Origin: Taiwanofungus camphoratus
Lineage: Eukaryota > Basidiomycota > Agaricomycetes > Polyporales > Taiwanofungaceae
DNA length: 64,000 nucleotides
Reading direction: 5' to 3'
NCBI GenBank assembly: GCA_003999685.1
Contig: CP021231.1
Coordinates: 558,001 to 622,000 of the forward strand
Part shown: positions 36,074-62,138 of the stretch, in pieces
Layout of the letters: every line of letters starts with the position of its first letter
How positions within the stretch are numbered: the first letter of the stretch is position 1
Notes under the pieces: generated by a model
The model's input: the letters and a program-made list of their open reading frames with translations, nothing else
Told to the model about the DNA's origin: nothing
Databases searched by the model: none
Made by a program: the position numbers and the translations under genes

Positions 36074-36383
36074 ATTTTGTAAATCCCTTATGTAGTGCTT
36101 GAAATTATGGTTGATGTAACATGTAAACAGGCTGGTTACTTCCCATATGCAGCCCCGTTTCGGGGCAGGCAGGCAGGCCCGAAACCAGCATCTGGTTGGC
36201 ATACCGTTATGGCACTGCAGTGTCCCGGAAATCGACCGAGGATCGAGGCAGCTACAACATTATTTACTACCAATATATCGGCACTGGTGCTCTTTCTCGT
36301 GACATTACAGGCTTTTTCCAGGGTCATTGCAGCATTGGAAGCACAACAGTAGCATCCAGTAGATGAAATTAACAACATATGAT

Positions 36384-36937
36384 TGATACAAGCTGGTATC
36401 AACGATCGGAAAGCCTCGAACGTGAGGACCTGGCTACTAGGGATAGTAGTGAGGCTTTATGGACACTGCGTATGTCCTCCTGGGCGAAGTCGATAGAGTC
36501 GAGCGAGTACTCAGGTACGAAGCGAGAGGTCGCAAGATACGAGTATAAGATTGCTAGTGGTAACTAGCTACTTGGTAACCAGATCGAACTTAAGGTCCGA
36601 CCTACAAAGTACACGGCCTTATATACGTATTCTACCCTGCGCACGGACCATGGCACGTGGTCTAAGAATCAGCATGAGTAAGCATAAGTAAGGCGATATG
36701 AGTCATCGGGCCATATTAGCAATCAGTAAGCGTAAGACAGAATGTGTAAGCGGGGCCCGATATGAGTCAATGTCCATGAGTAACCGGGGCCTGTCCGGGG
36801 CCCGTACCGTAAGCAGCGATGAATCAAGATGCTGCGCGAAGAAGCTGGGCCTACCTGAGGCCCGTCCTAGAAGCGAAAGGTCATGGGACCGATCTGAGGT
36901 CCGACCGATAAGATATGCGATGAAAGAAATTGTATCA
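36384..36937 (-). repeat. Element C LTR, left copy
   Basis: 554 bp, TGATACAA...TTGTATCA, preceded by ATGAT. Pairs with 61585-62138 in the same orientation. Confidence 0.9.
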
Positions 36938-37134: not shown

Positions 37135-37416
37135 TGATACGACCTAGGGGACCCTGGTACCTAGGGAGCGCTCCGCAACGTGGCTGTGGGGTAGTGTGAT
37201 AACTGTGAGGGTGTGAGGGTAGGAGCTACAACCTGTATGATACCGGGAAACCTGTATGTCTTGTTTTTGTAAGTAGGGGAGTAAGGGGTCAAGGGTCCTG
37301 CACAACAGGATCTTGTTCCTAAGTGCTATACTATCCCTAAGGCCTTGCGAGGCCCTCCGAAGTACGCAAAGTCCTTCGAGATTCTGCAAAGTCCTTCGAA
37401 GTTTTAGCTAAATCGC
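37135..37416 (-). repeat. Element B 3' LTR, distal fragment
   Basis: Begins TGATACGACC, the reverse complement of the LTR end. The rest of this LTR continues at 49427 after element A. It also forms an inverted repeat with the end of A's left LTR (about 38,750-39,023). Confidence 0.88.
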
Positions 37417-39023
37417 TGATGAGTCCCGTAGCCTCCTGGGCCCCGAATCGCGATTTTAGGAGCTTTCTAATCCCCCAACCGACCACTCTAAGACTCTCCT
37501 ACAGCCTACGACAGGAGGGATAGGTTCCTATAATATTCCTAACGCCCCCTCTTCTTCCTAAACCCTCCTAACACCCTACGAAGTCTTGCGAAGTCACACG
37601 AGGTGCTACGAGATTTCGAATGCTAGACGCGAAGTCCCTAACTCCTGCTAAGTCCACTATCGGACACTGCCGGCCCTCCCATACTGTTCCATTGGATCTA
37701 GGTCCTATCTACTACGTCACTCATCCCGGGCTTAGCTAAGAAGTCTTAGCTAAGTCTCTCCTAGCTCTTGTGATTGCAGCTACCTCCGATAGGCTCCGAA
37801 ACGGTCCGAAGTTCCGGAAGCTGGACGTAGGAAGCCTTGTGCACCCCCATGGGTCTCGATCCTATGCCATAAGGTCATCCTAGGGCGTACCCACATGACC
37901 CTCCACCCAGTTAGGACACCTCCTGCCCCGATTAGGCCAAGTCCCGCTGCTAAGAACTTCGTGCGCTCTTAGCCCGCTAAGATAGGTGATCACGGCGCAT
38001 GGCTGCTATCGGATAGTCATCCCGCCCTCGTGAATGAAGTTGGTCACCTTTCTACCGTTCGTAGTTCCCCTGTTTCAGTTCCTAATTAGTTCCTATCCTC
38101 CTCGTGTTCACTTCGGAGTCCAGGCGTTTTAGTACACATTTCGGACTCGTAAGGATCACTTCGCGCAAGATTAGTTCACCTCACGCTCTCCTATTTAGTC
38201 AGAGGTAGTTTACTATGTACAAGAGAGACCCCTCAGTGCACGCTTCTCTCTTTGGAATACCAGTTCCCCTGTAGCTCCGATCTCAGGAAAGCGCCGCGAG
38301 TACAACCTTAGGAACGGTCCTAAGGTCCCTAAGTCTCCACCCCAGCTTCATTTCAGTACCTTTAAACTACGTCTACGCTCGCGATATATCTACGAACCAC
38401 GTCTACGCTTCCCGAACTACGCACTACGATCTACGAAAGTCGCCGTGACTTCGCACCCTTCGGCACCTCTTATAGCACCTATCCGGTGGGCCTCCGCCTT
38501 AGTTATACCCTTAGGCTCACGTTGCATTATCCCTACGTCCTACGAATAGCCCTACGACTCGCCCATAGCCTTAGTTACAGGCTATAGTACATCTCCCTAC
38601 GCCCTCGAACTCTCCGACCTCTCCTACAGGTCTCCTACGCTAGCCAAACCTCGCCCACTTCGCTCTAACAAACTCCAAAACCTTACGCCCTTTAGCTAAC
38701 TCTAACCAGAAGGACTTCGCAGCATCTACGAAGTCAGCTCGCGCAATTTAGCTAAAACTTCGAAGGACTTCGCAAAACCTCGAAGAACTTCGCATACTTC
38801 GGAGGGCCTCGCAAGGCCTTAGGGATAGTATAGCACTTAGGAACAAGATCCTGTTGTGCAGGACCCTTGACCCCTTACTCCCCCACTTATAAAAACAAGA
38901 CATACAGGTTTCCCGGTATCATACAGGTTGTAGCTCCTACCCTCACACCTTCACAGTTATCACACTACCCCCAGCCACGTTGCGGAGCACTCCCTAGGTA
39001 CCAGGGTCCCCTAGGTCGTATCA
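37417..39023 (+). repeat. Element A left LTR
   Basis: 1,607 bp from TGATGAGTCCC to GTCGTATCA. A TATAAAAA box at 38888-38895 suggests transcription starts about 100 bp before the LTR end. The last 300 bp contain many short CTTCG/CGAAG motifs. Confidence 0.92.
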
Positions 39024-39027
39024 TTTC

Positions 39028-39044
39028 TGGAGCCCACCGCGAGG
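39028..39044 (+). other. Element A primer-binding site candidate
   Basis: TGGAGCCCACCGCGAGG follows the left LTR after four bases. It begins with TGG as expected for pairing to the CCA end of a tRNA. I could not name the tRNA. Element B has the same sequence next to its 5' LTR. Confidence 0.6.
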
Positions 39045-39177
39045 CGATCAGTTACTATCCGAGTTCTTTCAGGTCGGCTATCGTTACTATACTCAAGCAG
39101 GCCTTCCACGAAGCACCTCTTCGCGAACACCTACGACTATCCCCTCCGATATCATTTCTACACTCGAATCTTCCGAA

Positions 39178-41931
39178 TTGACCCCCGACTTTGAGGCTCT
39201 TTTCGAAGGGTCTCTAGACACGCTTACCACGTCCGAAGACTCACCAATTGAGGACTTCGAACCTCAGTCCACGTCCCCTGAGCTTCCTAACACCTCCGAA
39301 GGAAGCGGTCCTTCTTCAGCGTCTGACCCTATCTTAGTCCATTTACCGGCATCCCCTCAGCTATCCTCTACGCTCCCATCAGCTTCGCGTTCCCCTCCGA
39401 TTCCTTCTATTACACTTTCCGACGCTTCTACGACCCAATCTTCTTCGGCTAGCATCAACTCAGCTTCGAACCCATCTCTGACCGCACCCATTTTAGCTAA
39501 TCCCCTAAATCCTATTTCTGTGTCAACCATGAACGCACCTCCACTCATGCCGCCTCGAGGAGATCGTACATCCCCTACCTTCGATCCTGACCAGCCTAGG
39601 ACCATCCGAAGGTATTTCCAGGACTTAGAGTCACTTTTTGTCCGCTGCCAGATAGCGGATGAGGCGACGAAGAAACACTGGACTACTCGCTACCCTCCTA
39701 TCGATGTTTCGGACCTATGGGAGTCCCTCCCTGAGTGTTCCGATGTCACGAAGACCTATGAAGACTTCAAGAAGGAGATTAGAAGCCTCTACCCAGGCAC
39801 AGAGGACGATAGAATGTGGTCTATGTCTGACTTGGATCAGTTGATAGGAGAACGTGCTAGAATTGGAATCAACAATGCGGCAGACTTAGGAAGCTTCTAT
39901 CGTGAGTTTTATGCCATCACGAAGTACCTAATTTCGAAAAATAGGTTGTCTACTATCGAGCAAAGCCGTGCTTTCGCGAGGGCCTTCCAGCCTTCGCTAT
40001 GGGCTCGCGTGTCTACTAGGTTACAGCTAAAGTTCCCTGATCACTTACCCGATGATCCCTACACCTTGGACCAGCTACATAGCGCAGCGAAGTTCGTACT
40101 CCTTGGTACTTCTACGACTCTTACCTCTGCTACGACTGTAACTACTTCGCCCACTGCCGTGCCCGTGGGGGGCTCATCGCTAAAGATAGAGGATCTACAG
40201 ACGTTCGCGGAGATCCTCACGAAGTCCGTAACCAGTGCGCTAGCTCCTGTTCTTGCGAACCAGCGACCCTCTCGATTGGACAGCTCGCGCGGCGAGCACA
40301 CTCATGTAGAAGGCCAGTACTGTCACTATTGCGGGGACTTGGACTGCTGCACTAGGTGTTGCAAGCACATCGAGCAAGACATCAAGGATGGCAAGTGCAA
40401 GCGCAACCCAGATGGAAAGATAGTGCTGCCAAATGGAAATTTTGTACCCAGAACGATCCCAGGACGTACGATTCGCGATAGGCTTTACGAATATCATCGA
40501 CGAAATGGCACGAATTCCTCCCCACAGCTCCTATTCGAAATCGACAATCGCCTAAATGTGCCTGCATTCTCACTATCCGCCGAGGATCGTATAGCCGCTT
40601 TAGAACACGAGATTTACCAACTTCAGAGACGTCGCGAAGTCTTCGATGGTGTGGAAGTACCCCAGCGCAGAAGGCAGGGTGCTCCTAACGCGCAGTCTGA
40701 TCCTAGAAACCCACCCATAGCCAACGCACCTCCGATAGGACACGATCGGCATCCGGTAGTGGATCCCCCTGCTAACCAAGATGCCCCAGTGGCGGAGGCG
40801 CAGAACCAGACCCCTCCTACCATTCTAAGGCGATCCAATTATCCTTCTAATTCAGCGCCTTCGCCTCCGAAGCCTGCGAATGCGTCCGATCCGCCCATGA
40901 ACTCATCGGAGCATGCCTCGTCTACACCTAACGTACCAGCCCAACCAGCATCACAGGCAGCCATTCCACCGCCCGCTCCACCAGTACATCCTTTCGCTAA
41001 TGCTCGAGATGCTACTTACGCACCTCCGAATCTTCGAAATTTCGCAGCAGCTCCGAAGCCTACAGCAGATAAAGGCAAGGACGTGGCCTATAAGACGATC
41101 ACACCGGTTCATCAGGAGAAACTTACAGAGGAAATATTCGCGCGATCTATGAGAACACCCGTGGTTACACTAACGCCCGAGGAGCTACTATCTATATCCC
41201 CGGATGTTCGTGCGCGATATCGCGAAGCTATCACCCCTAAACGTGTGCCTATGGATCCTAAGGCTACTCATATGGCTCAAATTACGGAACTCTCAGACGA
41301 TCTCGCTTCTAAAACGACGCTAGCAACCTCCGAACTATCGTGCCACGGTGAACCCCTTGTCCCTGGTTCGACCATCATTCCAGACCCCTACGAAACGTAC
41401 TTACGACACGTACCCGGAAAGGAAGAACCCTCCGAAATCATAGTAGCCCGCGACTCGAATTCTATCCGTTCTATCGAAGCCCTAATCGACAACAAAGAGC
41501 GAATCGAATGCATCGTGGACCCTGGTTCACAAGTGGTTGCGATGTCAGAGCAAGTCTGTCATGCCTTAGGACTAATCTACGACCCTTCCGTGCAGCTAAA
41601 TATGCAGTCTGCTAATGGCAGTATTGACCGTTCTTTAGGACTGGTTCGAAATGTCTCGTTCCAAGTAGGCGACATCGTGTTGTACCTACAGATACACGTC
41701 ATACGCAATCCCTCCTACGATATCCTTCTAGGCCGACCCTTCGATGTGGTAACCGAGAGTGTGGTTAAGAACTTCGGAAACGAGGAGCAGACCATCACGA
41801 TCGTATGCCCGAACACGAGCGAAGTCGCGACCATCCCTACGATGCCTCGAGGACGTCAAAAGTTCTTACCAGCCCATCATCATAGTTGCCCCCACGCGAA
41901 CTCTTCGAATCATTTGCGATCGGGTTTTTAG
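39178..41931 (+). CDS. Element A gag-protease region
   Basis: An open region of about 917 codons. It holds a Ser/Pro-rich N-terminal part and a retrotransposon-gag-like helical segment (RTIRRYFQDLESLFVRCQ, YREFYAITKYLISKNRLS, ARAFQPSLWARV). A Cys/His cluster (CHYCGDLDCCTRCCKHI) of nucleocapsid or other zinc-binding type follows, then a second Pro-rich linker. An aspartic-protease-like segment closes it (ECIVDPGSQVVAMSEQVC, with YDILLGRPF). It overlaps the pol region by 46 bases in another frame, consistent with the frameshift expression common in Ty3-type families. Confidence 0.85.
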   Translation: MTPDFEALFEGSLDTLTTSEDSPIEDFEPQSTSPELPNTSEGSGPSSASDPILVHLPASPQLSSTLPSASRSPPIPSITLSDASTTQSSSASINSASNPSLTAPILANPLNPISVSTMNAPPLMPPRGDRTSPTFDPDQPRTIRRYFQDLESLFVRCQIADEATKKHWTTRYPPIDVSDLWESLPECSDVTKTYEDFKKEIRSLYPGTEDDRMWSMSDLDQLIGERARIGINNAADLGSFYREFYAITKYLISKNRLSTIEQSRAFARAFQPSLWARVSTRLQLKFPDHLPDDPYTLDQLHSAAKFVLLGTSTTLTSATTVTTSPTAVPVGGSSLKIEDLQTFAEILTKSVTSALAPVLANQRPSRLDSSRGEHTHVEGQYCHYCGDLDCCTRCCKHIEQDIKDGKCKRNPDGKIVLPNGNFVPRTIPGRTIRDRLYEYHRRNGTNSSPQLLFEIDNRLNVPAFSLSAEDRIAALEHEIYQLQRRREVFDGVEVPQRRRQGAPNAQSDPRNPPIANAPPIGHDRHPVVDPPANQDAPVAEAQNQTPPTILRRSNYPSNSAPSPPKPANASDPPMNSSEHASSTPNVPAQPASQAAIPPPAPPVHPFANARDATYAPPNLRNFAAAPKPTADKGKDVAYKTITPVHQEKLTEEIFARSMRTPVVTLTPEELLSISPDVRARYREAITPKRVPMDPKATHMAQITELSDDLASKTTLATSELSCHGEPLVPGSTIIPDPYETYLRHVPGKEEPSEIIVARDSNSIRSIEALIDNKERIECIVDPGSQVVAMSEQVCHALGLIYDPSVQLNMQSANGSIDRSLGLVRNVSFQVGDIVLYLQIHVIRNPSYDILLGRPFDVVTESVVKNFGNEEQTITIVCPNTSEVATIPTMPRGRQKFLPAHHHSCPHANSSNHLRSGF

Positions 41932-44900
41932 ATTTCGAGGATTTGAGAAATCAAGGAGAGGTCGCCCTGGTCGTTGAGTATGAATCCGATACCCCTAAAA
42001 TTGTGTCTTTCGCTGCTGTAAATGCAGCAGATAACAATTCTGTTCCTGCGCTCTATCTATCAGTCTCTAACTCTGTGTCTAGCTATCTGCAGTCTCTCTA
42101 TTTTAGCGAAACTTCGAAAGTCTCGGAAGGTCCGGCTGATCATACTAGGTGGCTATCTGGCTTTCTAGCAGCAGCAACACCGCACGAGGCTCCCTTCCTT
42201 TCACACGATAATCCGAATTCTCTCCCTATGCTTTCGCTTTCCGCCTCTAAAGACATATCCTCTATCCCCATTCCAGGTCCCAGGAACGCTACGAAGGTCA
42301 CGAAGTCAGCCCGAAGACCCTCCCTTGCTCCTAATCCGATGGTATCCCTTCCTAAGTTGTCAGATTCTTCCCCTATTCCTACATTTGCAGCATCGAAAAA
42401 GAAGTACAAGCCTGTAGCGCTGAAGACTCGCCCTATTCTGGGAGCTTTGGACGAACGATTCCGAATCATTCGCGAAATTAAAGGCGACCCTTTAGCGACG
42501 ATGCCTACCCTATCACCGACTCCACCACCTTTCGAACCTACTTCGCGATATACGCAAGAACGGCACGATCTCACGGACAAGCTACACAGTGGAGACTTCC
42601 TACAACCAGCAGAGAGGGACCTCCTACATCACTTTATGACCCTGCATGCTGATGCGTTCGCTTGGAATGATTCCGAAAGAGGGTGCTTCAAGCCGGAATA
42701 CTTCCCTCCTATCGACTTTCCGGTAGTACCGCACACGCCATGGGTACAAAAGAACATTCCTATCCCACCCGGAATCTACAACGAAGTGTGCGCAATAATC
42801 AAAAAGAAGATCGCAGCTAGGGTCTACGAACCTTCGAATTCTTCCTATCGTTCACGATGGTTTTGTGTGGTGAAGAAAGACGGAAAGTCCCTACGCCTTG
42901 TACATAGTCTGGAACCCCTAAACGCTGTCACGATTCAACACTCAGGTGTTCCCCCGACTCCCGAACACCTCGCAGAACAGTTCGGAGGACGACCTTGTGG
43001 TGCTATGTTGGATCTATATGTAGGCTACGATGAACGCTTGATAGCGGAGACTTCGCGCGATCTTACGACATTTCAAACACCTTTCGGAGCTATGAGATTG
43101 GTCACTCTACCTATGGGATGGACCAACTCGGTCCCTATCTTCCACGATGATGTTACGCACATCCTACAGCCCGAAATTCCTCACCTAACGGTTCCCTATA
43201 TCGACGATGTTCCGGTCAAAGGCCCTGAAAGTTCGTACGATCTCGTACCTATTTCGGAGAACCCAGGCATTCGAAAGTTTGTTTGGGAACATTTTACGAA
43301 CCTCAATAGGATAGTCACACGCATGCGCTACGCAGGAGGTACCTTTTCTGGAGTTAAAAGCATTCTAATTGCCCGCGAAATCACCGTTGTAGGGCATCGG
43401 TGTACTCCAGAAGGTCGCCTACCGGACGAGTCTCGTGTTGCAGCCATACGCAACTGGGGACCTTGTGCAACCCTATCTGACGTTCGAGCCTTTTTAGGAA
43501 CCATTGGAGTGGTCCGTATCTTCATCCGAAACTTCGCGCATCGTGCAGATGCCTTAGTACGCCTAACGCGAAAGGCGGTACCCTTCGAATTTGGTCCAGC
43601 GCAAATCGCAGCGCAGGAGGACCTTAAGGATGCTTTGCTGTCCTCTCCAGCTCTCCGATCCATTAACTATTCGTCAGGTGCGCCCGTCATCTTAGCGGTT
43701 GACACCTCCTATATTGCAGTTGGCTATCACCTTTGCCAATGCGATGAGGACAACCCTAAAGTCCGATTCTACAATCGTTTCGGATCCATCACCCTAAATG
43801 ATCGCGAGCGGAGGTTCTCGCAACCGAAGTTAGAGATCTACGGATTGTTTCGAGCACTTCGCGTACTACGAATCTACCTAATCGGAGTTAGGAACCTTAT
43901 AGTGGAAGTGGACGCACGCTATATCAAAGGGATGTTGCAAAATCCGGACATCGCACCCAGCGCGAGTATAAATCGCTGGATCGTATCGATTCTAACATTC
44001 CATTTCACCCTAGTACATGTACCAGGTACGATGCATGGACCAGATGGACTATCAAGACGAACCCCCCAGCCAGGAGATCAAGAAGAGAGCAGCGAAGAAG
44101 ACTTCGAAGACTGGATAGACAAAATGCACTCGTTTCTACATCACATCCAAGCCCCCCCTTCCCATCCTATACCATCGATTTCTACCCTATTCCCTTACGA
44201 ATTCGCCTCTAACATTCCTATCACAACCCCCACACCTCCGATAGCTCCAACCTTCGCCTCCGAGTTGGCTGAGGACAGCCAAGGTCTCAATAGGGAGGAG
44301 GAGAGCTACGATAGCGTCCCAAGATCCGAAATGGCCAAGGAAGCTGACGCAAGACTTGACTTAGTAGCAAAATTCCTACGAAGCCTCGCGAGACCTGCCA
44401 ACCTATCGGATTCAGAATACGAAGGTTTCGTAAAATACTGTCTTCTATTCTTCCTCGATGAGGACATACTATGGCGCAAAGATCCACAAGGAGCTCACAA
44501 ACTAGTTGTAAAGCAGGCAGATCGTCTACGAATCCTCCGAGAATGTCACGATGCAGTCGCGCATCGAGGAATACACGCTACGAAGGTGCTGATTTCGGAG
44601 CGGTTTTGGTGGCCCTACCATCATATCGACATTGCCTGGTATGTTCGAAGCTGCCACCTATGCCAGATTCGCCAAGTGCGGCAGATCCTAATCCCTCCTA
44701 CGGTCGCTACGCCCGCTCCGATCTTCGCAAAGGTTCATATAGATACCATGCATATGCCCCCTTCTAACGGATTTAGGTACTTGGTGCAAGGCCGGTGTTC
44801 TCTAACCCAGTACCCCGAATTTCGGATGCTTCGCAAGGAGACGGCTAAAGCTTTGGCAGAATGGCTCTTCGAAGACTTTGTTTGTAGGTGGGGTGCGCTA

Positions 44901-45740
44901 TCGGAGATAGTCACGGACAACGGCGCTCCCTTCGTAAAAGCCACGAACTACATAGCGAAGAAGTACCAGCTACGACACATCCGAATTAGCGGGTACAATT
45001 CGCGTGCCAACGGACTGGTGGAGAGGCCTCACTTCGATGTTAGGCAGGCTCTATTCAAGGCCGTGGATGGCGAAGAGTCTAAATGGTCTCAGGCAACGTA
45101 CTCAGTCTTCTGGTCCGAAAGGATCACGACTCGAAAGCGCATGGGATGTTCGCCCTATTTCGCAGTCACTGGCACCCACCCTGTTATCCCTTTGGACGTC
45201 GTAGAGGCCACCTATATCCTTCCTCCTCCGTCCTCCATGCTATCCACGACCGATCTTATCGCACGTCGAGCTATCGCATTGCAAAAGCGGGTGACTCAGG
45301 TAGCGGAACTACATTCGAAGGTCTACGAAGCGCGAAGACAAGCTGCTCTGCGATTCGAAGAAAAGCATAAGCACACCATCCACGATTTCAACTTCGAAAA
45401 GGGCGATTTAGTACTAATTCGCAACACACAGATAGAAAAGTCCCTAAATCGAAAGATGCGACCTCGCTACCTCGGCCCGGTACTCGTGGTATCTAGAAAC
45501 AAAGGTGGTGCTTATATCCTATGCGAATTGGATGGTTCGGTACTCGACAGGCCTACGGCAGCCTTCCGAGTCATCCCCTACTTAGCGCGAAAAGCCCTCG
45601 AACTTCCTACCGAACTCCTGGACGTGTCGACAGAGCGACTTCGCGAACTAGAGCTGACTACCACCCAAGGCGATGACGAAGAACTAGGATCGTATCCCTA
45701 CTCTCCTAAGTCCGGCTCTAGTCCATCCGAAACTCACTAA
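41886..45740 (+). CDS. Element A pol region: reverse transcriptase, RNase H, integrase
   Basis: About 1,284 codons. Reverse transcriptase motifs include RWFCVVKKDGKSLRLV, FQTPFGAMRLVTLPMGW and the catalytic YIDDV. RNase H follows with AVDTSYIAVGYHLCQ and LEIYGLFRALRV. Integrase shows the zinc-binding H-H-C-C part (AVAHRGIHATK, SCHLCQIR), the core Asp/Asp/Glu region (VTDNGAPFVKATNYI, SRANGLVERPHF) and a GPY-like C-terminal module (YLGPVLVVSRNKGGAYIL). The order RT-RNaseH-integrase defines Ty3/Gypsy. I see no chromodomain after the integrase. Confidence 0.9.
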   Translation: MPPRELFESFAIGFLDFEDLRNQGEVALVVEYESDTPKIVSFAAVNAADNNSVPALYLSVSNSVSSYLQSLYFSETSKVSEGPADHTRWLSGFLAAATPHEAPFLSHDNPNSLPMLSLSASKDISSIPIPGPRNATKVTKSARRPSLAPNPMVSLPKLSDSSPIPTFAASKKKYKPVALKTRPILGALDERFRIIREIKGDPLATMPTLSPTPPPFEPTSRYTQERHDLTDKLHSGDFLQPAERDLLHHFMTLHADAFAWNDSERGCFKPEYFPPIDFPVVPHTPWVQKNIPIPPGIYNEVCAIIKKKIAARVYEPSNSSYRSRWFCVVKKDGKSLRLVHSLEPLNAVTIQHSGVPPTPEHLAEQFGGRPCGAMLDLYVGYDERLIAETSRDLTTFQTPFGAMRLVTLPMGWTNSVPIFHDDVTHILQPEIPHLTVPYIDDVPVKGPESSYDLVPISENPGIRKFVWEHFTNLNRIVTRMRYAGGTFSGVKSILIAREITVVGHRCTPEGRLPDESRVAAIRNWGPCATLSDVRAFLGTIGVVRIFIRNFAHRADALVRLTRKAVPFEFGPAQIAAQEDLKDALLSSPALRSINYSSGAPVILAVDTSYIAVGYHLCQCDEDNPKVRFYNRFGSITLNDRERRFSQPKLEIYGLFRALRVLRIYLIGVRNLIVEVDARYIKGMLQNPDIAPSASINRWIVSILTFHFTLVHVPGTMHGPDGLSRRTPQPGDQEESSEEDFEDWIDKMHSFLHHIQAPPSHPIPSISTLFPYEFASNIPITTPTPPIAPTFASELAEDSQGLNREEESYDSVPRSEMAKEADARLDLVAKFLRSLARPANLSDSEYEGFVKYCLLFFLDEDILWRKDPQGAHKLVVKQADRLRILRECHDAVAHRGIHATKVLISERFWWPYHHIDIAWYVRSCHLCQIRQVRQILIPPTVATPAPIFAKVHIDTMHMPPSNGFRYLVQGRCSLTQYPEFRMLRKETAKALAEWLFEDFVCRWGALSEIVTDNGAPFVKATNYIAKKYQLRHIRISGYNSRANGLVERPHFDVRQALFKAVDGEESKWSQATYSVFWSERITTRKRMGCSPYFAVTGTHPVIPLDVVEATYILPPPSSMLSTTDLIARRAIALQKRVTQVAELHSKVYEARRQAALRFEEKHKHTIHDFNFEKGDLVLIRNTQIEKSLNRKMRPRYLGPVLVVSRNKGGAYILCELDGSVLDRPTAAFRVIPYLARKALELPTELLDVSTERLRELELTTTQGDDEELGSYPYSPKSGSSPSETH

Positions 45741-46273
45741 AGAATCAGAGGAGCAATCGACGATACCCCGACTTTAGCTAAGATTACGCTACGTCCATTT
45801 TACTTTTCGCTTACCCTTTGGTCATGTTTTTACTTTCCCCAACAAGCCCCCACTCAGTTTGACAGCTACGAAGTTCCGAATGTCTACGAATTTTTACTTA
45901 CAACATCTCCTACTTTTTACTATAGTGATTCAACTCACGAAGTCGCGATATCGTTCTAAAAAGCTCCTAAAACGCCGAGCGGAGCGAAGATTGCGCGAGG
46001 GGCCTTAAGCCCTTCAAGGCCATGATGATTTACTGAGCCTAAATGAGCGCATTTTATCCCCCTAAGTCTTCTAATTCTTTGCTGTGTTGTTTGGTTACTT
46101 CACACACTTAGGAACCTTTTCACAAGGACGACGTTTGCGTCCGCTTTATTCAGACTACTGTACACATATTGGAAAAGGTCCCTAGCAAAGGGACGCGCAA
46201 CGAGAGAGAATACAGCACGTTGGTGCGACAGATACGGAACGAGCGAGATGACGAACTACGAACCCCCCACCTT
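45741..46273. other. Non-coding spacer between convergent pol and accessory gene, element A
   Basis: About 530 bp, AT-richer than the coding parts, no open frame of note. Both the LTR-driven transcript and the antisense accessory transcript would meet here. The matching spacer in B is about 52447-52982. Confidence 0.6.
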
Positions 46274-47651
46274 CTAAACCTCGGCCTCAGCATCTTCCTC
46301 ATCCTGCTCGGACTCACCAGAGGGACCAGGATCGGTAGAGGAGGCGGCGACGCGACGGCGAGGAAGGGGGAGAGAGCTCAAGTCGAGCGGCGCAGGCGTA
46401 CGACCGGTTAGGGCGGTTTCGGCACGATAGAGCCCCGAGATGTAGTCTTCGAGACGCATCGCGCGACTCTCGGCCATCGCGCGGTCATACCAGAGGCCTT
46501 CGACAACGGCTTGATGCGCAGGGGTGAGGCCGTCCAAGTATTCAGCGCCGTTAAGGGCCAGCGAGGCCTCGAGCGACATCGTAGGCGCAGGGGTCGACTT
46601 CGCCTTCTTGGACTCGCGGGCGCGAGGCGGGGACACCTGAGGAGGTTGGCCCGCAGCTAGGGAACGTCTTAACATCAGCAATGTCGCGATAACGAGGGCA
46701 CGAGAAGCCCTACCACGCTTCGAAACGCGCACGCCGCGCTCCTTACCGTCTACGGAGAATCCGCCCCAATAACACCCCTGCGACTCTCGCAGGCACTTAC
46801 CACACTTCACGGCGCCCGCGGGGAGTTCGCACTCGAAGTCTGCGGTGTAGGTGCTGCAGCGATCGCACTAGGTAGCAATGATAAGCCGCGAACAGTCACG
46901 AAAAGGACGTGCACTCACCTTCGCATGAGTTCGCCTATGCTCCGCCGCCTTCGCCATGTTAGCCAGGGCTTCGGGCGTCGGAGGAGCCTTCGCCTTCGCA
47001 GCGTCCTTCCCCGGAGTAGGAGGGACCCCTACGAAGACACCCGAACTAGTGGACGAGGCGAGTTCACCAACTTGGCCGCTAGAAACGGAGGCCATGATCG
47101 AGCTGGCCTGGGAAGCCGCGCGAGTAGAAGCCGCTGCCTTGGCCCGAGCTGAGGGACGACGAGTACGCGAGGAGGTACGACTAGGAGCCGGCGAAGGAGC
47201 AGAAGACGAAGCCGCAAGTTGGGCAGCACGTTCAAGCGCAGCGCGCTCGACCGCCTCCACATGAAGTCGTTCGGTCGCACGGGCGAGTTCGCGCTGTGCG
47301 TCTCGCTCTTGAAGCATAGCAGCGAACTGAGGAAAGCCGGTGCGAGCCCACGAGATCCACGACGAGTCCGCGAGAGGGAGGATCACTGTCAAACCTTCGA
47401 CGATGGCGGCCTCTAAGGTAGGATCGGCGGGAGCGTTCGAAGCCTGGGACAGGACCCGCCAGTTACCCTATAACGCAGTGAAGACGATGTATCGAGCGAT
47501 CGAGGAGGGTACGTACCACACGACGTCCTAAGTTCCTCGCCCACCGCAGGTAATCTTCGGCCTCCGCTACGCCCTCCGGACGAGAATCGAGGAGCGCCAG
47601 GACATCGCTGTGAGCCAGGCCAACACCATCAGAGTCCATATCGTCGAACAT
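46274..47651 (-). CDS. Element A antisense accessory gene (cysteine-cluster protein)
   Basis: Three coding blocks on the strand opposite to gag-pol, about 47651-47500, 47480-46925 and 46873-46274, are separated by short gaps with GT/AG borders. The first begins MFDDMDSDGVGLAHSDVLAL. The second is Ala/Ser/Arg-rich with a probable coiled coil (MLQERDAQRELARATERL). The third starts with a Cys cluster (CDRCSTYTADFECEL, then VKCGKCLRESQGC) and ends in a very acidic tail (SEQDEEDAEAEV). The Cys spacing suggests zinc binding. The start codon lies 169 bp from the 3' LTR, so its promoter probably lies in or next to that LTR, pointing inward. Element B has the same gene. Function unknown; a regulator of the element or a captured host gene are both possible. 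Confidence 0.72.
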
Positions 47652-47810
47652 GATGGGGAAGGGAAAGGCAAAAGGGGAGAAAGGAGAAAAAGATAAGAGG
47701 CACCCACAATTAGCTTCTATCAGGATATCGCCCGCTTCGCAGATCGGACGCGATAGGCTACAAGTTCCCACGGTCGTGCACACTGACTGAGGGCAGTCAG
47801 GATTTCAATA

Positions 47811-47819
47811 GGGAGGAGG
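47811..47819 (+). other. Element A polypurine tract
   Basis: GGGAGGAGG directly before the right LTR, the usual plus-strand primer site. Its reverse complement stands at the same place in element B (50916-50924). Confidence 0.8.
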
Positions 47820-49426
47820 TGATGAGTCCCGTAGCCTCCTGGGCCCCGAATCGCGATTTTAGGAGCTTTCTAATCCCCCAACCGACCACTCTAAGACTCT
47901 CCTACAGCCTACGACAGGAGGGATAGGTTCCTATAATATTCCTAACGCCCCCTCTTCTTCCTAAACCCTCCTAACACCCTACGAAGTCTTGCGAAGTCAC
48001 ACGAGGTGCTACGAGATTTCGAATGCTAGACGCGAAGTCCCTAACTCCTGCTAAGTCCACTATCGGACACTGCCGGCCCTCCCATACTGTTCCATTGGAT
48101 CTAGGTCCTATCTACTACGTCACTCATCCCGGGCTTAGCTAAGAAGTCTTAGCTAAGTCTCTCCTAGCTCTTGTGATTGCAGCTACCTCCGATAGGCTCC
48201 GAAACGGTCCGAAGTTCCGGAAGCTGGACGTAGGAAGCCTTGTGCACCCCCATGGGTCTCGATCCTATGCCATAAGGTCATCCTAGGGCGTACCCACATG
48301 ACCCTCCACCCAGTTAGGACACCTCCTGCCCCGATTAGGCCAAGTCCCGCTGCTAAGAACTTCGTGCGCTCTTAGCCCGCTAAGATAGGTGATCACGGCG
48401 CATGGCTGCTATCGGATAGTCATCCCGCCCTCGTGAATGAAGTTGGTCACCTTTCTACCGTTCGTAGTTCCCCTGTTTCAGTTCCTAATTAGTTCCTATC
48501 CTCCTCGTGTTCACTTCGGAGTCCAGGCGTTTTAGTACACATTTCGGACTCGTAAGGATCACTTCGCGCAAGATTAGTTCACCTCACGCTCTCCTATTTA
48601 GTCAGAGGTAGTTTACTATGTACAAGAGAGACCCCTCAGTGCACGCTTCTCTCTTTGGAATACCAGTTCCCCTGTAGCTCCGATCTCAGGAAAGCGCCGC
48701 GAGTACAACCTTAGGAACGGTCCTAAGGTCCCTAAGTCTCCACCCCAGCTTCATTTCAGTACCTTTAAACTACGTCTACGCTCGCGATATATCTACGAAC
48801 CACGTCTACGCTTCCCGAACTACGCACTACGATCTACGAAAGTCGCCGTGACTTCGCACCCTTCGGCACCTCTTATAGCACCTATCCGGTGGGCCTCCGC
48901 CTTAGTTATACCCTTAGGCTCACGTTGCATTATCCCTACGTCCTACGAATAGCCCTACGACTCGCCCATAGCCTTAGTTACAGGCTATAGTACATCTCCC
49001 TACGCCCTCGAACTCTCCGACCTCTCCTACAGGTCTCCTACGCTAGCCAAACCTCGCCCACTTCGCTCTAACAAACTCCAAAACCTTACGCCCTTTAGCT
49101 AACTCTAACCAGAAGGACTTCGCAGCATCTACGAAGTCAGCTCGCGCAATTTAGCTAAAACTTCGAAGGACTTCGCAAAACCTCGAAGAACTTCGCATAC
49201 TTCGGAGGGCCTCGCAAGGCCTTAGGGATAGTATAGCACTTAGGAACAAGATCCTGTTGTGCAGGACCCTTGACCCCTTACTCCCCCACTTATAAAAACA
49301 AGACATACAGGTTTCCCGGTATCATACAGGTTGTAGCTCCTACCCTCACACCTTCACAGTTATCACACTACCCCCAGCCACGTTGCGGAGCACTCCCTAG
49401 GTACCAGGGTCCCCTAGGTCGTATCA
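47820..49426 (+). repeat. Element A right LTR
   Basis: 1,607 bp, same length as the left copy with no difference noticed by eye. Followed by the TCGC duplication and the rest of B's 3' LTR. Confidence 0.92.
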
Positions 49427-50915
49427 TCGCGCGAGCTGACTTCGTAGGCTGTATAGAGTTAGGGGGCAATAAGCCAATGGACTATAATTTCTACTAAACG
49501 GCAGAGGGTACGAGACTGCTGCGAAGTCCTTTTAGCTAGAGTTAGCTAAAGGGCGTAAGGTTTAGAGGTTTGTTAGAGCGAGGTGGGCGAGGTTTGGCTA
49601 GCGTAGGAGACTTGTAGGAGAGGTCGGATGGTTCGGAGAGCTAATACTTGGAATAGGAATGAGGGAACGAGGTTGCTGGAAGCTCTGAAGTGTCTGATGA
49701 CTTCGAGGTGTGGGTCGGAGAGTTCGAGGGTGTAGAGAGATGTACTATAGCCTGTAATGAAGGCTATGGGGGAGTCGTAGGGTTATTCGTAGGACGTAGG
49801 GATGACACAACGTGAGCCTAAGGGTATAACTAAGGCGGAGGCCCACCGGATAGGTGCTATAAGAGGTGCTGAAGGGTGCGAAGTCACGGCGACTTTCGTA
49901 GATCGTAGTGCGTAGTTCGGGAAGCGTAGACGTGGTTCATAGATATATCGCGAGCGTAGACGTAGTTCAAAGGTACTGAAACGAAGCTGGGGTGGAGACT
50001 TAGGGACCTTAGGACCGTTCCTAAGGTTGTACTCGCGGCGCTTTCCTGAGATCGGAGCTACAGGGGAACTGGTATTCCAAAGAGAGAAGCATGCACTGAG
50101 GGGTCTCTTTCGTACATAGTAAACTACCTCTGACTAAATAGGGGAGCGTGAGGTGAACTAATCTTGCACGAAGTGATCCTTACGAGTCCGAAATGTGTAC
50201 TAAAACGCATGGACTCCGAAGTGAACACGAGGGGGATAGGAACTAATTAGGAACTGAAACAGGGGAACTACGAACGGTAGAAAGGTGACCAACTTCATTC
50301 ACGAGGGCGAGATGACTATCCGAGAGCAGCCATGCGCCGTGATCACCTATCTTAGCGGGCTAAGACCGCACAAAGTTCTTAGCAGTGGGACTTGGCCTAA
50401 TCGGGGCAGGAGGTGTCCTAACTGGGTGGAGGGTCATATGGGTACGCCCTAGGATGACCTTATGGCATAGGATCGAGACCCATGGGGGTGCACAAGGCTT
50501 CCTAAGTCCAACTTCCGGAACTTCGGACCGTTTCAGAGCCTATCGGAGGTAGCTGCAATCACAAGAGCTAGAAGAGACTTAGCTAAGACTTCTTAGCTAA
50601 GCCCGGTATGAGTGACGTAGTAGATAGGACCTAGATCCAATGGAACAGTATGGGAGGGCCGGCAGTGTCCGATAGTGGACTTAGCAGGAGTTAGGGACTT
50701 CGCGTCTAGCATTCGAAATCTCGTAGCACCTCGTGTGACTTCGCCAGACTTTGTAGGGTGTTAGGAGGGTTTAGGAAGGAGAGGGGGCGTTAGGAATATT
50801 ATAGGAACCTATCCCTCCTGTCGTAGGCTGTAGAAGAGTCTTAGAGTGGTCGGTTGGGGGATTAGAAAGCTCCTAAATTCACGATTCGGGGCCCAGAAGG
50901 CTACGGGACTCATCA
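49427..50915 (-). repeat. Element B 3' LTR, proximal fragment
   Basis: Continues the LTR begun at 37135-37416. It carries extra segments relative to B's 5' LTR within about 49,440-49,740; otherwise the two are very similar. Ends at GGGACTCATCA, next to the reversed purine tract. Confidence 0.86.
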
Positions 50916-51083: not shown

Positions 51084-52446
51084 ATGTTTGATGATATGGA
51101 CTCTGATGGTGTTAGCCTAGCTCACAGCGATGTCCTGGCGCTCCTCGATTCTCGTCCGGAGGGTGTAGCGGAGGCCGAAGATTACTTGCGGTGGGCGAGG
51201 AACTTAGGACGTCGTGTGGTACGTGTTCTCCTCGAGCGCTCGCTACATTGTCTTCACTGTGTTATAGGGTAACTGGCGGGTCCTGTCTCAGGCCTCAAAC
51301 GCTCCTGCCGATCCTATCTTAGAGGCCACCATCATCGAAGGTTTGACGGCGATCCTCCCTCTCGCGGACTCGTCGTGGATCTCGTGGGCCCGCACCGGCT
51401 TCCCTCAGTTCGCCGCTATGCTTCAAGAGCGAGACGCACAGCGCGAACTTGCCCGCGCAACCGAACGACTTCGCGTGGAGGCGGCCGAGCGCGCTGCCCA
51501 ACTTGCGGCTTCGTCTTCTGCTCCTTCGCCAGCCCCTAGTCGTACCTCATTGCGCACTCGTCGTCCCTCAGCTTGGGCCAAGGCAGCAGCTTCTACTCGC
51601 GCGGCTTCCCAGGCCAGCTCGATCATGGCCTCCGTTTCTAGCGGCCAAGTCGGCGAACTCGCCTCGTCCACGAGTTCGGATGTCTTCGTAGGGGTCCCTC
51701 CTACTCAGGGGAAGGACACTGCGAAGGCGAAGGCTCCTCCGACGCCCGAAGCCCTGGCTAACATGGTGAAGGTGGCAGAGCATCGGCGAACCCATGTGAA
51801 GGTGAGTGCACATCTTTTTCGTGACTGTTCGCGACTTATCATCGCTACCTAGTGCGATCGCTGCAGCACCTACACCACCGACTTCGAGTGCGAACTCCCT
51901 GTGGGTGCCGTGAAGTGCGGTAAGTGCCTGCGAGAGTCGCAGGGGTGTTATTGGGGCGGGTTCTCTGTAAACGGTAAGGAGCGCGGAGTGCGCGTTTCGA
52001 AGCACGGTAGGGCTTCTCGTGCCCTCGTTATCGCGTCATTGCTGATGTTAGGACGTCCCCTAGCTGCGGGCCAACCTCCTCAGGTGTCCCCGCCTCGCGC
52101 CCGCGAGTCCAAGAAGGCGAAGTCGACCCCTGCGCCTACGATGTCGCTCGAGGCCTCGCTGGCCCTTAACGGTGCCGAATACTTGGACGGCCTTACCCCT
52201 GCGCATCAAGCCGTTGTCGAAGGCCTCTGGTATGACCGTGCGATGGCCGAGAGTCGCGCGATGCGTCTCGAAGACTACATCTCGGGACTCTATCGTGCCG
52301 AAACCGCCCTAACCAGTCGTACGCCTGCGCCGCTCGACTTGAGCTCTCTCCCCCTTCCTTGCCGTCGCGTTGCCGCCTCCTCCACTGATCCTGGTCCCTC
52401 CGGTGAGTCCGAGCAGGATGAGGAAGATGCCGAGGCCGAGGTTTAG
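51084..52446 (+). CDS. Element B antisense accessory gene (cysteine-cluster protein)
   Basis: Same organisation as in element A: a first block from MFDDMDSDGVSLAHSDVLAL, a middle Ala/Ser/Arg-rich block, and a last block with CDRCSTYTTDFECEL, VKCGKCLRESQGC and the acidic end. Compared with A it shows scattered substitutions and a length difference in the ERL..VEA..ERAAQ stretch that is a multiple of three, which is what selection on a coding region would allow. It runs opposite to B's gag-pol, so both elements keep the gene and its antisense orientation. Confidence 0.72.
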
Positions 52447-52982: not shown

Positions 52983-55900
52983 TTAGTGAGCTTCGGATGG
53001 ACTAGAGCCGGACTTAGGAGAGTAGGGATACGATCCTAGTTCTTCGTCATCGCCTTGGGTGGTAGTCAGCTCTAATTTGCGAAGTCGTTCCGTCGACACG
53101 TCCAAGAGTTCAGTAGGAAGTTCGAGAGCTTTTCGCGCTAAGTAGGGGATGATTCGGAAGGCTGCTGTAGGCCTGTCGAGTACCGAACCATCCAATTCGC
53201 ATAGGATATAAGCACCACCTTTGTTCCTAGATACCACGAGTACTGGGCCGAGGTAGCGAGGTCGCATCTTCCGATTTAGGGACTTTTCTATCTGTGTGTT
53301 GCGAATTAGTACTAAATCGCCCTTCTCGAAGTTGAAATCGTGGATGGAGTGCTTATGCTTTTCTTCGAATCGCAGAGCAGCTTGTCTTCGCACTTCGTAG
53401 ACCTTCGAATGTAGTTCCGCTACCTGAGTCACCCGCTTTTGCAATGCGATAGCTCGACGTGCGATAAGATCGGTCGTGGATAGCATAGAAGACGGAGGAG
53501 GAAGGATATAGGTGGCCTCTACGACGTCCAAAGGGATAACAGGGTGGGTGCCAGTGACCGCAAAATAGGGCGAACATCCCATGCGCTTTCGAGTTGTGAT
53601 CCTTTCGGACCAGAAGACTGAGTACGTTGCCTGAGACCATTTAGATTCTTCGCCATCCACGGCCTTGAATAGAGCCTGCCTAACATCGAAGTGAGGCCTC
53701 TCCACCAGTCCATTGGCACGCGAATTGTATCCGCTAATTCGGATGTGTCGTAGCTGGTACTTCTTCGCTATGTAGTTCGTGGCTTTTACGAAGGGAGCGC
53801 CGTTGTCCGTGACTATCTCCGATAGCGCGCCCCACCTACAAACAAAGTCTTCGAAGAGCCATTCTGCCAAAGCTTTAGCTGTCTCCTTGCGAAGCATCCA
53901 AAATTCGGGGTACTGGGTTAGAGAACACCGGCCTTGCACCAAGTACCTAAATCCGTTAGAAGGGGGCATATGCATGGTATCTATATGAACCTTTGCGAAA
54001 ATCGGAGCGGGCATAGCGACCGTAGGAGGGATTAGGATCTGCCGCACTTGGCGAATCTGGCATAGGTGGCAGCTTCGAACATACCAGGCAATGTCGATAT
54101 GATGGTAGGGCCACCAAAACCGCTCCGAAATCAGCACCTTCGTAGCGTGTATTCCTCGATGCGCGACTGTATCGTGACATTCTCAGAGGATTCGTAGACG
54201 ATCTGCCTGCTTTACAACTAGTTTGTGAGCTCCTTGTGGATCTTTGCGCCATAGTATGTCCTCATCAAGGAAGAATAGAAGACAGTATTTTACGAAACCT
54301 TCGTATTCTGAATCTGATAGGTTGGCAGGTCTCACGAGGCTTCGTAGGAATTTTGCTACTAAGTCAAGTCTTGCGTCAGCTTCCTTGGCCATTTCGGATC
54401 TTGGGACACTATCGTAGCTCTCCTCCTCCCTATTGAAACCTTGGCTGTCCTCAGCCAACTCGGAGGCGAAGGTTGGAGCTATCGGAGGTGTGGGGGTTGT
54501 GATAGGAATGTTAGAGGCGAATTCGTAAGGGAATAGGGTAGAAATTGATGGTATAGGATGGAAAGGGGGGGCTTGGATGTGATGTAGAAACGAGTGCATT
54601 TTGTCTATCCAGTCTTCGAAGTCTTCTTCGCTGCTCTCTTCTTGATCTCCTGGCTGGGGGGTTCGTCTTGATAGTCCGTCTGGTCCATGCATCGTACCTG
54701 GTACATGTACTAGGGTGAAATGGAATGTTAGAATCGATACGATCCAGCGATTTATACTCACGCTGGGTGCGATGTCCGGATTTTGCAACATCCCTTTGAT
54801 ATAGCGTGCGTCAACCTCTACTATAAGGTTCCTAACTCCGATTAGGTAGATTCGTAGTACGCGAAGTGCTCGAAACAATCCGTAGATCTCTAACTTCGGT
54901 TGCGAGAACCTCCACTCGCGATCATTTAGGGTGATGGATCCGAAACGATTGTAGAATCGAACTTTAGGGTTGTCCTCATCGCATTGGCAAAGGTGATAGC
55001 CAACTGCAATATAGGAGGTGTCAACCGCTAAGATCACGGGCGCACCTGACAAATAGTTAATGGATCGGAGAGCTGGAGAGGACAGCAAAGCATCCTTAAG
55101 GTCCTCTTGCGCTGCGATTTGCGCTGGACCAAATTCGAAGGGTACTGCCTTTCGTGTTAGGCGTACTAAGGCATCTGCACGATGTGCGAAGTTTCGGATG
55201 AAGATACGGATCACTCCAATGGTTCCTAAAAAGGCTCGAACGTCAGATAGGGTCGCACAAGGTCCCCAGTTGCGTATGGCTGCAACACGAGACTCGTCCG
55301 GTAGGCGACCTTCTGGAGTACACCGATGCCCTACAACGGTGATTTTGCGGGCAATTAGAATGCTTTTAACTCCAGAAAAGGTACCTCCTGCATAGCGCAT
55401 GTGTGTGACTATCCTATTGAGGTTCGTAAAATGTTCCCAAACAAACTTTCGAATGCCTGGGTTCTCCGAAATAGGTACGAGATCGTACGAACTTTCAGGG
55501 CCTTTGACCGGAACATTGTCGATATAGGGAACTGTTAGGTGAGGAATTTCGGGCTGTAGGATGTGCGTAACATCATCGTGGAAGATAGGGACCAAGTTGG
55601 TCCACCCCATAGGTAGAGTGACCAATCTCATAGCTCCGAAAGGTGTTTGAAATGTCGTAAGATCGCGCGAAGTCTCCGCTATTAAGCGTTCATCATAGCC
55701 TACATATAGATCCAACATAGCACCACAAGGTCGTCCTCCGAACTGTTCTGCGAGGTGTTCGGGAGTCGGGGGAACGCCTGAGTGTTGAATCGTGACAGCG
55801 TTTAGGGGTTCCAGGCTATGTACAAGGCGTAGGGACTTTCCGTCTTTCTTCACCACACAAAACCATCGTGAACGATAGGAAGAATTTGAAGGTTCGTAGA

Positions 55901-61321: not shown

Positions 61322-61584
61322 ACGTCTGAAATAGGAGGCTAATTTCTCCTGTGCTCGTTGAGCCGAAATTGTCCCTGCCCACACGAGTGGGGAGTTCGGG
61401 TAGATCGGATCGAGGTTCTGGTCAACGAAAGTCCAACGAAGACGATCGTACAGAAGCGGCGCGTCGTTTACTTGAGTCGGCAATCCACAAGCGGTGGGGT
61501 CGACTGTCTCGATGGTAGACGTGGTGTCTAACGGTTAGCCCTACTAGATAAGACTAGGGGCGACTTAGCGTAAGTTCAATCTTT

Positions 61585-62138
61585 TGATACAAGCTAGTAT
61601 CAACGACCGGAAAGCCTCGAACGTGAGGACCTGGCTACTAGAAACAGTAGTGAGGCTTTATGGACACTGCGTATGTCCTCCTGGGCGAAGTCGATAGAGT
61701 CGAGCGAGTACTCAGGTATGAAGCGAGAGATCGCAAGATACGAGTATAAGATTGCTAGTGGTGACTAGCTACTTGGTAACCAGATCGAACTTAAGGTCCG
61801 ACCTACAAAGTACAGGGCCTTATATACGTATGCTACCCTGCGCACGGACCATGGCACGTGGTCTAAGAATCAGCATGAGTAAGCGTAAGTAAGGCGATAT
61901 GAGTCATTGGACCGTATTAGCAATCAGTAAGCGTAAGACGGAATGTGTAATCGGGGCCCGATATGAGTCAATGTCCATGAGTAACTGGGGCCCGTCCGGG
62001 GCCTGTACCGTAAGCAGCGATGAATCAAGATGCTGCGCAAAGAAGCTGGGCCTACCCGAGGCCCGTCCTAGAAGCGAAAGGTCATGGGACCGATCCGAGG
62101 TCCGACCGATAAGATATGCGATGAAAGAAATTGTATCA
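61585..62138 (-). repeat. Element C LTR, right copy (5' LTR of C)
   Basis: 554 bp, followed by ATGAT. Contains the same TATATAAGG box on the minus strand as the left copy. Confidence 0.9.

What the first reader, a model, noticed from the sequence alone, without database searches (positions are those of the whole stretch)
46274..47651. Conserved antisense accessory gene inside a fungal Ty3/Gypsy element
Element A carries, between pol and the 3' LTR, a multi-block gene on the opposite strand encoding a Cys-cluster protein with an acidic tail. The related element B keeps the same gene in the same antisense position. Ty3/Gypsy elements normally encode only gag-pol. Antisense extra genes are known in a few plant families, but I know of no described role for one like this in mushrooms. 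It could regulate the element, act as a captured transcription factor, or interfere with sense expression.
Basis: partly seen in the sequence, partly recalled or inferred. Interest (0 to 1): 0.78.

Follow-up and report, generated by a model that had tools for sequence, protein, structure and literature searches.

The report
Antisense accessory gene in fungal retrotransposons
A jumping element in this fungus carries, on its opposite strand, a real intron-containing gene for a cysteine-cluster protein that evolution has kept intact about as strictly as the element's own enzymes, and a stand-alone cousin of that gene sits elsewhere in the same genome.

Summary
Confirmed and extended. Window 46274-47651 (minus) is a four-exon gene (introns of 49, 51, 57 nt; 406 aa) with a six-cysteine cluster CX2CX8CX8CX2CX6C and an acidic tail, between pol and 3' LTR of a Ty3/Gypsy-like element. 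Of 112 pol 3' ends kept from one genome search, 102 have such a gene antisense 0.4-1.3 kb downstream. Purifying selection is strong: omega 0.11-0.23 against nine of ten diverged copies, 0.41 in the tenth; variants shared between copies are purged much as in pol (implied omega 0.20 against 0.13), singletons are near neutral. A second, anciently split Gypsy family (protein 22.5% identical) keeps three intron positions and the cysteine pattern. An intact single-copy homologue (38% identical) lies at C3:1164016-1165346 beside an FG-repeat ORF; no LTR or gag-pol was found in the 5.6 kb read. Antisense genes of this layout are known (plant Grande, RIRE2, Retand; Boty brtn in Botrytis), so this is a new variant of a known kind. 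Most likely it encodes a nuclear regulator of the element; that role is inferred. Zn2Cys6 membership was tested and not met.

The parts
37417..49426 (+). Element A (Ty3/Gypsy-like), LTR to LTR
   Evidence: LTRs found by exact ends and compared; domains
37417..39023 (+). 5' LTR of A, 1607 bp, identical to the 3' LTR (0 mismatches)
39178..41931 (+). gag-protease ORF of A (917 aa; aspartyl protease domain near its end)
41886..45740 (+). pol ORF of A (1284 aa; RNase H then integrase zinc domain; overlaps the gag ORF in another frame)
46274..46656 (-). antisense gene exon 4: helical stretch and acidic tail
   Evidence: helix predicted
46657..46713 (-). intron 3 (57 nt, phase 1); GT..AG in 38 of 40 copies
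   Evidence: diverges faster than exons in the diverged set, branch-site-like GCTGATG or GCTAATG in most displayed copies; borders; intron at the same place in the second family
46714..46867 (-). exon 3: Cys cluster CX2CX8CX8CX2CX6C
46868..46918 (-). intron 2 (51 nt, GTGAGT..TAG); GT..AG in 39 of 40 copies
46919..47467 (-). exon 2: probably helical start, then low-complexity linker (by eye)
47468..47516 (-). intron 1 (49 nt, GTACGT..TAG); GT..AG in 39 of 40 copies
47517..47651 (-). exon 1 with start codon
47652..47819 (-). putative promoter and 5' leader: pyrimidine-rich tract before the ATG; less divergent than exons or introns in the diverged set
   Evidence: promoter role inferred
47783..47800 (.). 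perfect inverted repeat CTGACTG-N4-CAGTCAG, exact in 39 of 40 copies (L046 has unrelated sequence there)
   Evidence: role unknown
47807..47819 (+). purine-rich tract directly before the 3' LTR (polypurine tract by position)
   Evidence: sequence
47820..49426 (+). 3' LTR of A
51084..52446 (+). same gene in element B (reversed element), four exons

Best explanation
It is an accessory protein gene that belongs to a Gypsy lineage and is transcribed from its own promoter next to the 3' LTR, opposite to gag-pol. Its pre-mRNA is spliced; the sense genomic RNA is not spliced there, so the introns survive each round of retrotransposition. The protein (N-terminal part, long linker, six-Cys probable zinc cluster, basic patch, helix, acidic tail) is most likely a nuclear regulator of the element's own expression, working in outline like the retroviral antisense factor HBZ or the nuclear gene23 protein of maize Grande. 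SHOWN: gene structure, kept splice borders and cysteines across families, linkage to pol, purifying selection. INFERRED: own promoter, splicing in vivo, zinc binding, nuclear location, regulatory role.
For: Selection: NG86 omega of A against ten diverged copies is 0.11-0.23 in nine and 0.41 in the damaged L046. ML omega is 0.261 for the gene and 0.210 for a pol piece in recent copies, 0.348 for both in the wider set (run, read from logs). In 31 recent copies nonsynonymous/synonymous is 40/34 in singletons, 12/22 in variants of 2-3 copies, 6/28 in variants of 4 or more; neutral 2.0; Fisher p 0.0011 singleton versus shared. With CpG hypermutability allowed for, shared variants give omega 0.20 (p 3.5e-10), singletons 0.66 (p 0.089). 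Linkage: 102 of 112 pol ends. Borders: introns 1, 2 and 3 GT..AG in 39, 39 and 38 of 40 copies. Second family: introns at the same three positions, lengths of the last three exons kept in 10 of 10 aligned copies while introns 1-3 vary 49-57 nt, omega 0.19-0.27 at dS 0.55-1.2. Cysteines: six kept in 19 of the 20 rows covering the cluster. Basic patch and acidic tail also in L049 at 42% identity. 5' leader less divergent (0.081) than introns (0.17-0.22) in the diverged set.
Against: No RNA or protein evidence was available. The Cys cluster matches no Pfam model, no PDB sequence and not the Zn2Cys6 profile (hhalign probability 0.8%, E 0.071, 17 columns). Between Cys 2 and 3 family I has no Lys or Arg, family II mostly one or two Arg or His. 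The cluster's structure could not be predicted (mean pLDDT 42). The second family has only a very short acidic end, its exons 1-2 diverge more than its introns 2-3 (0.42 and 0.35 against 0.31 and 0.30), its extra intron has clean borders in only 4 of 10 aligned copies, and 5 of those 10 copies hold stops. The donor of intron 3 is AT in L050 and L051. In recent copies introns 2 and 3 diverge about as exon 2 does. The regulatory role rests on architecture and analogy.
Confidence: 0.5

Rival explanations
1. Anti-silencing factor: the protein counters the host's DNA methylation or heterochromatin on element copies, as proposed for TET/JBP genes carried by fungal DNA transposons.
For: Copies show a strong CpG transition excess (rate 0.269 against 0.059 for other transitions in the gene), so methylation-linked decay is likely; passages of PMC12730594 speculate that transposon TET counters such hypermutation and note that no retrotransposon was found with one.
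Against: No enzyme domain found in the protein; a cluster and a helix alone do not suggest an eraser.
Confidence: 0.2
2. Replication-cycle protein: it acts in nuclear import of the pre-integration complex, integration-site choice or particle function, not in transcription.
For: Selection close to pol's and tight linkage to pol; PMC7264820 discusses nuclear import and a role in retrotransposition for plant antisense ORFs.
Against: Separate antisense, intron-bearing gene, unlike structural genes; no similarity to such proteins found.
Confidence: 0.2
3. The antisense RNA, not the protein, matters (dsRNA or interference with sense transcription).
For: The gene overlaps the 3' part of the sense RNA; PMC7264820 discusses this possibility.
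Against: Constraint is codon-specific and follows the exons' reading frame.
Confidence: 0.05
4. Neutral passenger that hitch-hikes in a recently amplified element.
For: Many copies are young and 96-100% identical.
Against: N/S contrast between shared and singleton variants; omega about 0.1-0.3 at dS near 1 in two families; kept splice borders.
Confidence: 0.02

Closest known systems
Boty antisense gene brtn (Botrytis cinerea, Sclerotinia sclerotiorum)
   Same: Fungal LTR element with an antisense gene between pol and 3' LTR (text of PMC7264820; passages and reference entry of PMC8365987)
   Different: The original paper (Zhao 2011) was not read. Introns and selection as measured here were not mentioned in the passages seen.
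Maize Grande gene23, rice RIRE2, Silene Retand ORF4/TRP28 (plant antisense aORFs)
   Same: Position, orientation, presence in most copies, conservation similar to element proteins; Grande product nuclear, transcribed from its own promoter (parts 1-2 of PMC7264820; passages of PMC11963269)
   Different: No shared domain found: no Pfam hit, so no TRP28. For plants the review cites a lack of similar genes outside the elements; here one exists.
HTLV-1 HBZ
   Same: Antisense retroviral gene, nuclear protein (passage of PMC11963269); HTLV antisense promoter inside the 3' LTR (part 2 of PMC7264820)
   Different: HBZ's bZIP class is recalled, not from a call; no sequence relation is claimed; host and element group differ.
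Zn2Cys6 (Gal4-type) fungal transcription factors
   Same: Six cysteines with two CX2C pairs in the order CX2CXnCXnCX2CX6C, followed by basic, helical and acidic parts
   Different: X8 instead of X6 after the first pair, few or no basic residues there, no Pfam or profile match.

Membership tests
Ty3/Gypsy LTR retrotransposon (element A) | two LTRs, target-site duplication | tested here: met
   1607-bp LTRs identical, TG..CA ends, TCGC on both sides
Ty3/Gypsy LTR retrotransposon (element A) | protease, RT-RNase H, then integrase order | tested here: met
   aspartyl protease, RT_RNaseH, Integrase_H2C2 in that order; the RT core itself gave no Pfam hit at E 0.1
[quoted passage not shown]
   102 of 112 pol ends have it antisense downstream; the LTR side was located exactly in A and B only
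antisense accessory ORF between pol and 3' LTR (aORF-3R) | conservation like gag-pol | tested here: met
   (pol piece of 342 codons; gag not measured)
antisense accessory ORF between pol and 3' LTR (aORF-3R) | antisense transcript | not testable with these tools
Zn2Cys6 transcription factor | CX2CX6CX5-12CX2CX6-8C spacing (recalled) | tested here: not met
   X8 in place of X6, constant over families
Zn2Cys6 transcription factor | match to the family profile | tested here: not met
Zn2Cys6 transcription factor | fold with two zinc ions | tested here: inconclusive
   AlphaFold2 models of low confidence
Boty brtn | sequence homology to brtn | not tested
   brtn sequence was not at hand

The most novel reading that the evidence does not exclude
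The antisense gene is of cellular kin: a host gene, with introns and probably its promoter, entered an ancestral Gypsy element as genomic DNA in antisense orientation (or an element gene was domesticated), giving a lasting element regulator. The single-copy homologue at C3:1164016-1165346 is the surviving host side. It would be a known source or derivative for an antisense retrotransposon gene, whose origin the plant review calls unknown.
Probability: 0.5. Interest if true: 0.75.

Novelty: new variant of a known kind. Interest (0 to 1): 0.62.

Why it matters
Antisense accessory genes of LTR retrotransposons are known from plants and from Boty in ascomycetes, without a known function or origin (PMC7264820). 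Here one is multi-exon, demonstrably under selection at the level of transposing copies, shared by families that split long ago, and has an intact stand-alone relative in the host genome. That makes two open questions testable: what these genes do for the element, and whether they come from or return to the host. It also shows how an intron-bearing gene can persist in a retroelement: in antisense its introns are not spliced out of the genomic RNA.

Tried and rejected
Pfam, NCBIfam and PDB sequence searches found no relative. One viral contigs and one genome-contig scan, which reach close relatives only, found none. No fungal collection other than the own genome was at hand, so spread over other fungi is untested. 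Antisense gene in very different Gypsy families (pol 22-25% identical, L038 and L039): rejected for L039, where by eye an LTR breaks the cluster gene, so that element is nested; not claimed for L038. C8:1441391 (L041, E 0.018) was rejected as a chance hit in a glutathione-transferase-like protein (by eye). The tree does not decide whether the stand-alone gene is donor or domesticated copy. A first 425-aa model without intron 3 was replaced by 406 aa; still counted intron 3 as coding, so the omegas were recomputed. One search's line on stops counts gap codons as stops and is not used; stop counts are those.

Papers: PMC7264820 read in parts 1-2 of 3; PMC11963269, PMC8365987, PMC3248453 and PMC12730594 as passages; the rest from search listings. 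That I found no basidiomycete antisense Gypsy gene in print rests on searches of an open-licence library only.

Rows dropped: 12 short second pieces's 124 rows and 3 second pieces's 115 rows were left out; only 43 rows (last-exon rows and loners) were used; the 118 merged gene loci include the rejected C8:1441391 and fragments. L046 was left out of the trees and ML; copies over half gapped and duplicate sequences were dropped there (38, 30, 33 and 27 sequences used). L040 was left out because of a nested insert. The rows of alignments 53 and 74 came from a cysteine pattern plus L057, so their 'invariant' cysteines are partly by selection; the count is free of that.

Full report
WHAT IS THERE. 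Element A spans 37417-49426 with two 1607-bp LTRs that do not differ at any base and the 4 bases TCGC on both sides. The gag-protease ORF and pol ORF follow in sense; the domain order aspartyl protease, RNase H, integrase zinc domain fits Ty3/Gypsy, although the RT core gave no Pfam hit. Between pol (ends 45740) and the 3' LTR (starts 47820) lies a gene on the opposite strand, 47651 to 46274. It has four exons and three introns of 49, 51 and 57 nt, and encodes 406 aa. The cluster CDRC-X8-C-X8-CGKC-X6-C opens exon 3 directly after an intron; the protein ends in an acidic tail.

COPIES. The own genome (33.2 Mb, 15 contigs) has at least 40 full-length DNA matches at 96-100% (capped, so a lower bound). 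Protein hits merge into 118 loci, among them fragments and one hit that I reject. Of 112 pol 3' ends kept, 102 have the gene antisense within 3 kb downstream, at 423-1254 bp between the hits; 2 have one in sense. The 10 without include two very distant pols (24-25% identity) and damaged or truncated copies; 16 gene loci have no such pol.

SPLICE SITES AND INTEGRITY. Of 40 aligned copies, intron 1 is GT..AG in 39 (not L046), intron 2 in 39 (not L048), intron 3 in 38 (AT donor in L050 and L051), while intron 1 varies between 48 and 50 nt and intron 2 between 50 and 51. 28 of the 31 recent copies (A, B, L002-L030) have no stop and no frame-breaking change in the gene; L005, L010 and L018 have one stop each.

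SELECTION. Pairwise omega of A against B, L042, L050, L051, L043, L044, L045, L047 and L048 is 0.14, 0.23, 0.20, 0.20, 0.20, 0.19, 0.17, 0.11 and 0.20; for the badly damaged L046 it is 0.41. Codon-model omega is 0.261 (gene) and 0.210 (pol piece) for recent copies and 0.348 for both in the wider set (runs, values read). Mean divergence in the nine-copy set is 0.12-0.15 in exons, with an excess at third positions in each of the four exons, against 0.17-0.22 in introns. In recent copies intron 2 (0.030) and intron 3 (0.023) lie near exon 2 (0.026), though above exons 1, 3 and 4 (0.019, 0.010, 0.013); only intron 1 (0.058) stands out there.

TEST BY ALLELE FREQUENCY. Variants seen in a single copy mostly arose after insertion; variants shared by several copies passed through transposition (premise). 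Nonsynonymous/synonymous is 40/34 for singletons, 12/22 for variants in 2-3 copies and 6/28 for variants in 4 or more (neutral 2.0; Fisher p 0.0011 singleton versus shared); pol shows 22/27, 2/9 and 5/18. With CpG hypermutability modelled, the neutral ratio is 1.79; singletons imply omega 0.66 (p 0.089) and shared variants 0.20 (p 3.5e-10), against 0.42 (p 0.0037) and 0.13 in pol. Element lineages that damage this gene therefore leave few descendants, nearly as for pol. Such selection on element copies implies that the product mostly serves the element that encodes it (inference).

SECOND FAMILY. Relatives in L031-L037 and L040, with pol mostly 62-70% identical to A's, carry the gene antisense behind pol. 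In L053 it has five exons and 386 aa, with introns at the positions of A's introns 1, 2 and 3 plus one more. In 10 aligned copies the last three exons keep their lengths in 10 of 10; introns 1, 2 and 3 vary over 49-54, 49-53 and 50-57 nt, with GT..AG in 8, 10 and 10 of 10; the extra intron has clean borders in 4 of 10; 5 of 10 copies are free of stops. The third position is the most variable in all five exons. Against a simple picture, exons 1 and 2 (0.42, 0.35) diverge more than introns 2 and 3 (0.31, 0.30), while exons 3-5 diverge less (0.19-0.22); the 300 bp behind the gene diverge least (0.14). Omega at dS 0.55-1.2 is 0.19-0.27; between close pairs it is 0.26-0.55, as expected for decaying insertions. 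Protein identity to A is 22.5% over 346 positions. Among the 20 rows that cover the cluster (picked by similarity; a few loci are listed twice), 19 keep all six Cys; L057 lacks the first. L056 and L057 represent a third, degraded group.

STAND-ALONE HOMOLOGUE. C3:1164016-1165346 (L049) encodes 385 aa without stops. Exon 1 (135 nt) and exon 3 (154 nt) are as long as A's; introns of 51, 53 and 69 nt sit at the same places, the last with a GC donor. It is 38.4% identical to A over 375 positions. Codon positions differ by 0.42, 0.40 and 0.67; about 10 stops would be expected if the changed codons were random (P of none 3.6e-5, a rough figure). Beyond itself the next best match in the genome is 40% identical. 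No gag-pol similarity (best E 0.99) lies in the 3.2-kb L049, and no LTR-like direct repeats, and no DNA matches to the window or to six other loci, were found in the 5.6 kb of L049 plus L058. No pol hit or 62 lies near, within their capped lists. A 691-aa ORF rich in FG repeats (nucleoporin-like by eye; no Pfam hit) on the same strand ends about 0.5 kb upstream of the gene's ATG. The tree leaves its place among groups I and III open, so donor or domesticated copy cannot be told apart.

MECHANISM. Shown: a real gene, antisense, old, tied to pol, under selection on the protein. Inferred: it has its own promoter. The 168 bp between ATG and LTR diverge less (0.081) than introns or exons in the diverged set (not less than exons 3 and 4 in the recent set), carry a pyrimidine-rich tract before the ATG, and contain a perfect inverted repeat at 47783-47800 that is exact in 39 of 40 copies. 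Because the genomic RNA is the other strand, the introns are not removed during retrotransposition, which explains how a multi-intron gene persists. The layout of Cys cluster, basic patch (PRARESKKAK), helix and acidic tail suggests a nuclear regulator. I put this at 0.5, with an anti-silencing role (0.2) and a replication-cycle role (0.2) as main rivals.

KNOWN OR NEW. [quoted passage not shown] New here, as far as the open-licence library shows: such a gene in what is probably a basidiomycete, its several conserved introns, the frequency-based test of selection, and a stand-alone homologue. The host was not identified; the AIM3/BBC1 domain fits a fungus, and basidiomycete is my inference. 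Zn2Cys6 membership was tested and not met.

Noticed in passing
window 37135-37416 and 49427-50915: Element A is inserted inside the (reversed) 3' LTR of element B; B's other LTR lies at 59766-61321 and B's pol is split into two ORFs (52983-54137 and 54183-56837).
   Followed up: partly
window 36383-36682 and 61584-61883: Another LTR-like repeat family (97% identical pair) flanks the A/B nest; by eye, similar sequence breaks a Cys-cluster gene in L035/L036/L039 and sits in intron 2 of L040.
   Followed up: partly
L045 (C1:2702700-2705900): Against A, the antisense gene has dS 0.61-0.63 but the pol piece only 0.11: likely a mosaic made by recombination between element lineages.
   Followed up: no
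31 recent copies, gene and pol piece: Transitions at CpG are about 4.6 times as frequent per site as other transitions, which suggests cytosine methylation of the copies.
   Followed up: partly
G000 C10:627142-659924: Four gene copies follow each other at 10468-10469 bp, about one element less one LTR: looks like a head-to-tail tandem array.
   Followed up: no
window 41886-41931: The listed gag and pol ORFs overlap by 46 nt in different frames, as if pol were made by frameshifting; ORF starts are mechanical.
   Followed up: no
window 30202-31152 and 7219-8835: Probable host genes: AIM3/BBC1 C-terminal domain protein and an F-box protein.
   Followed up: no
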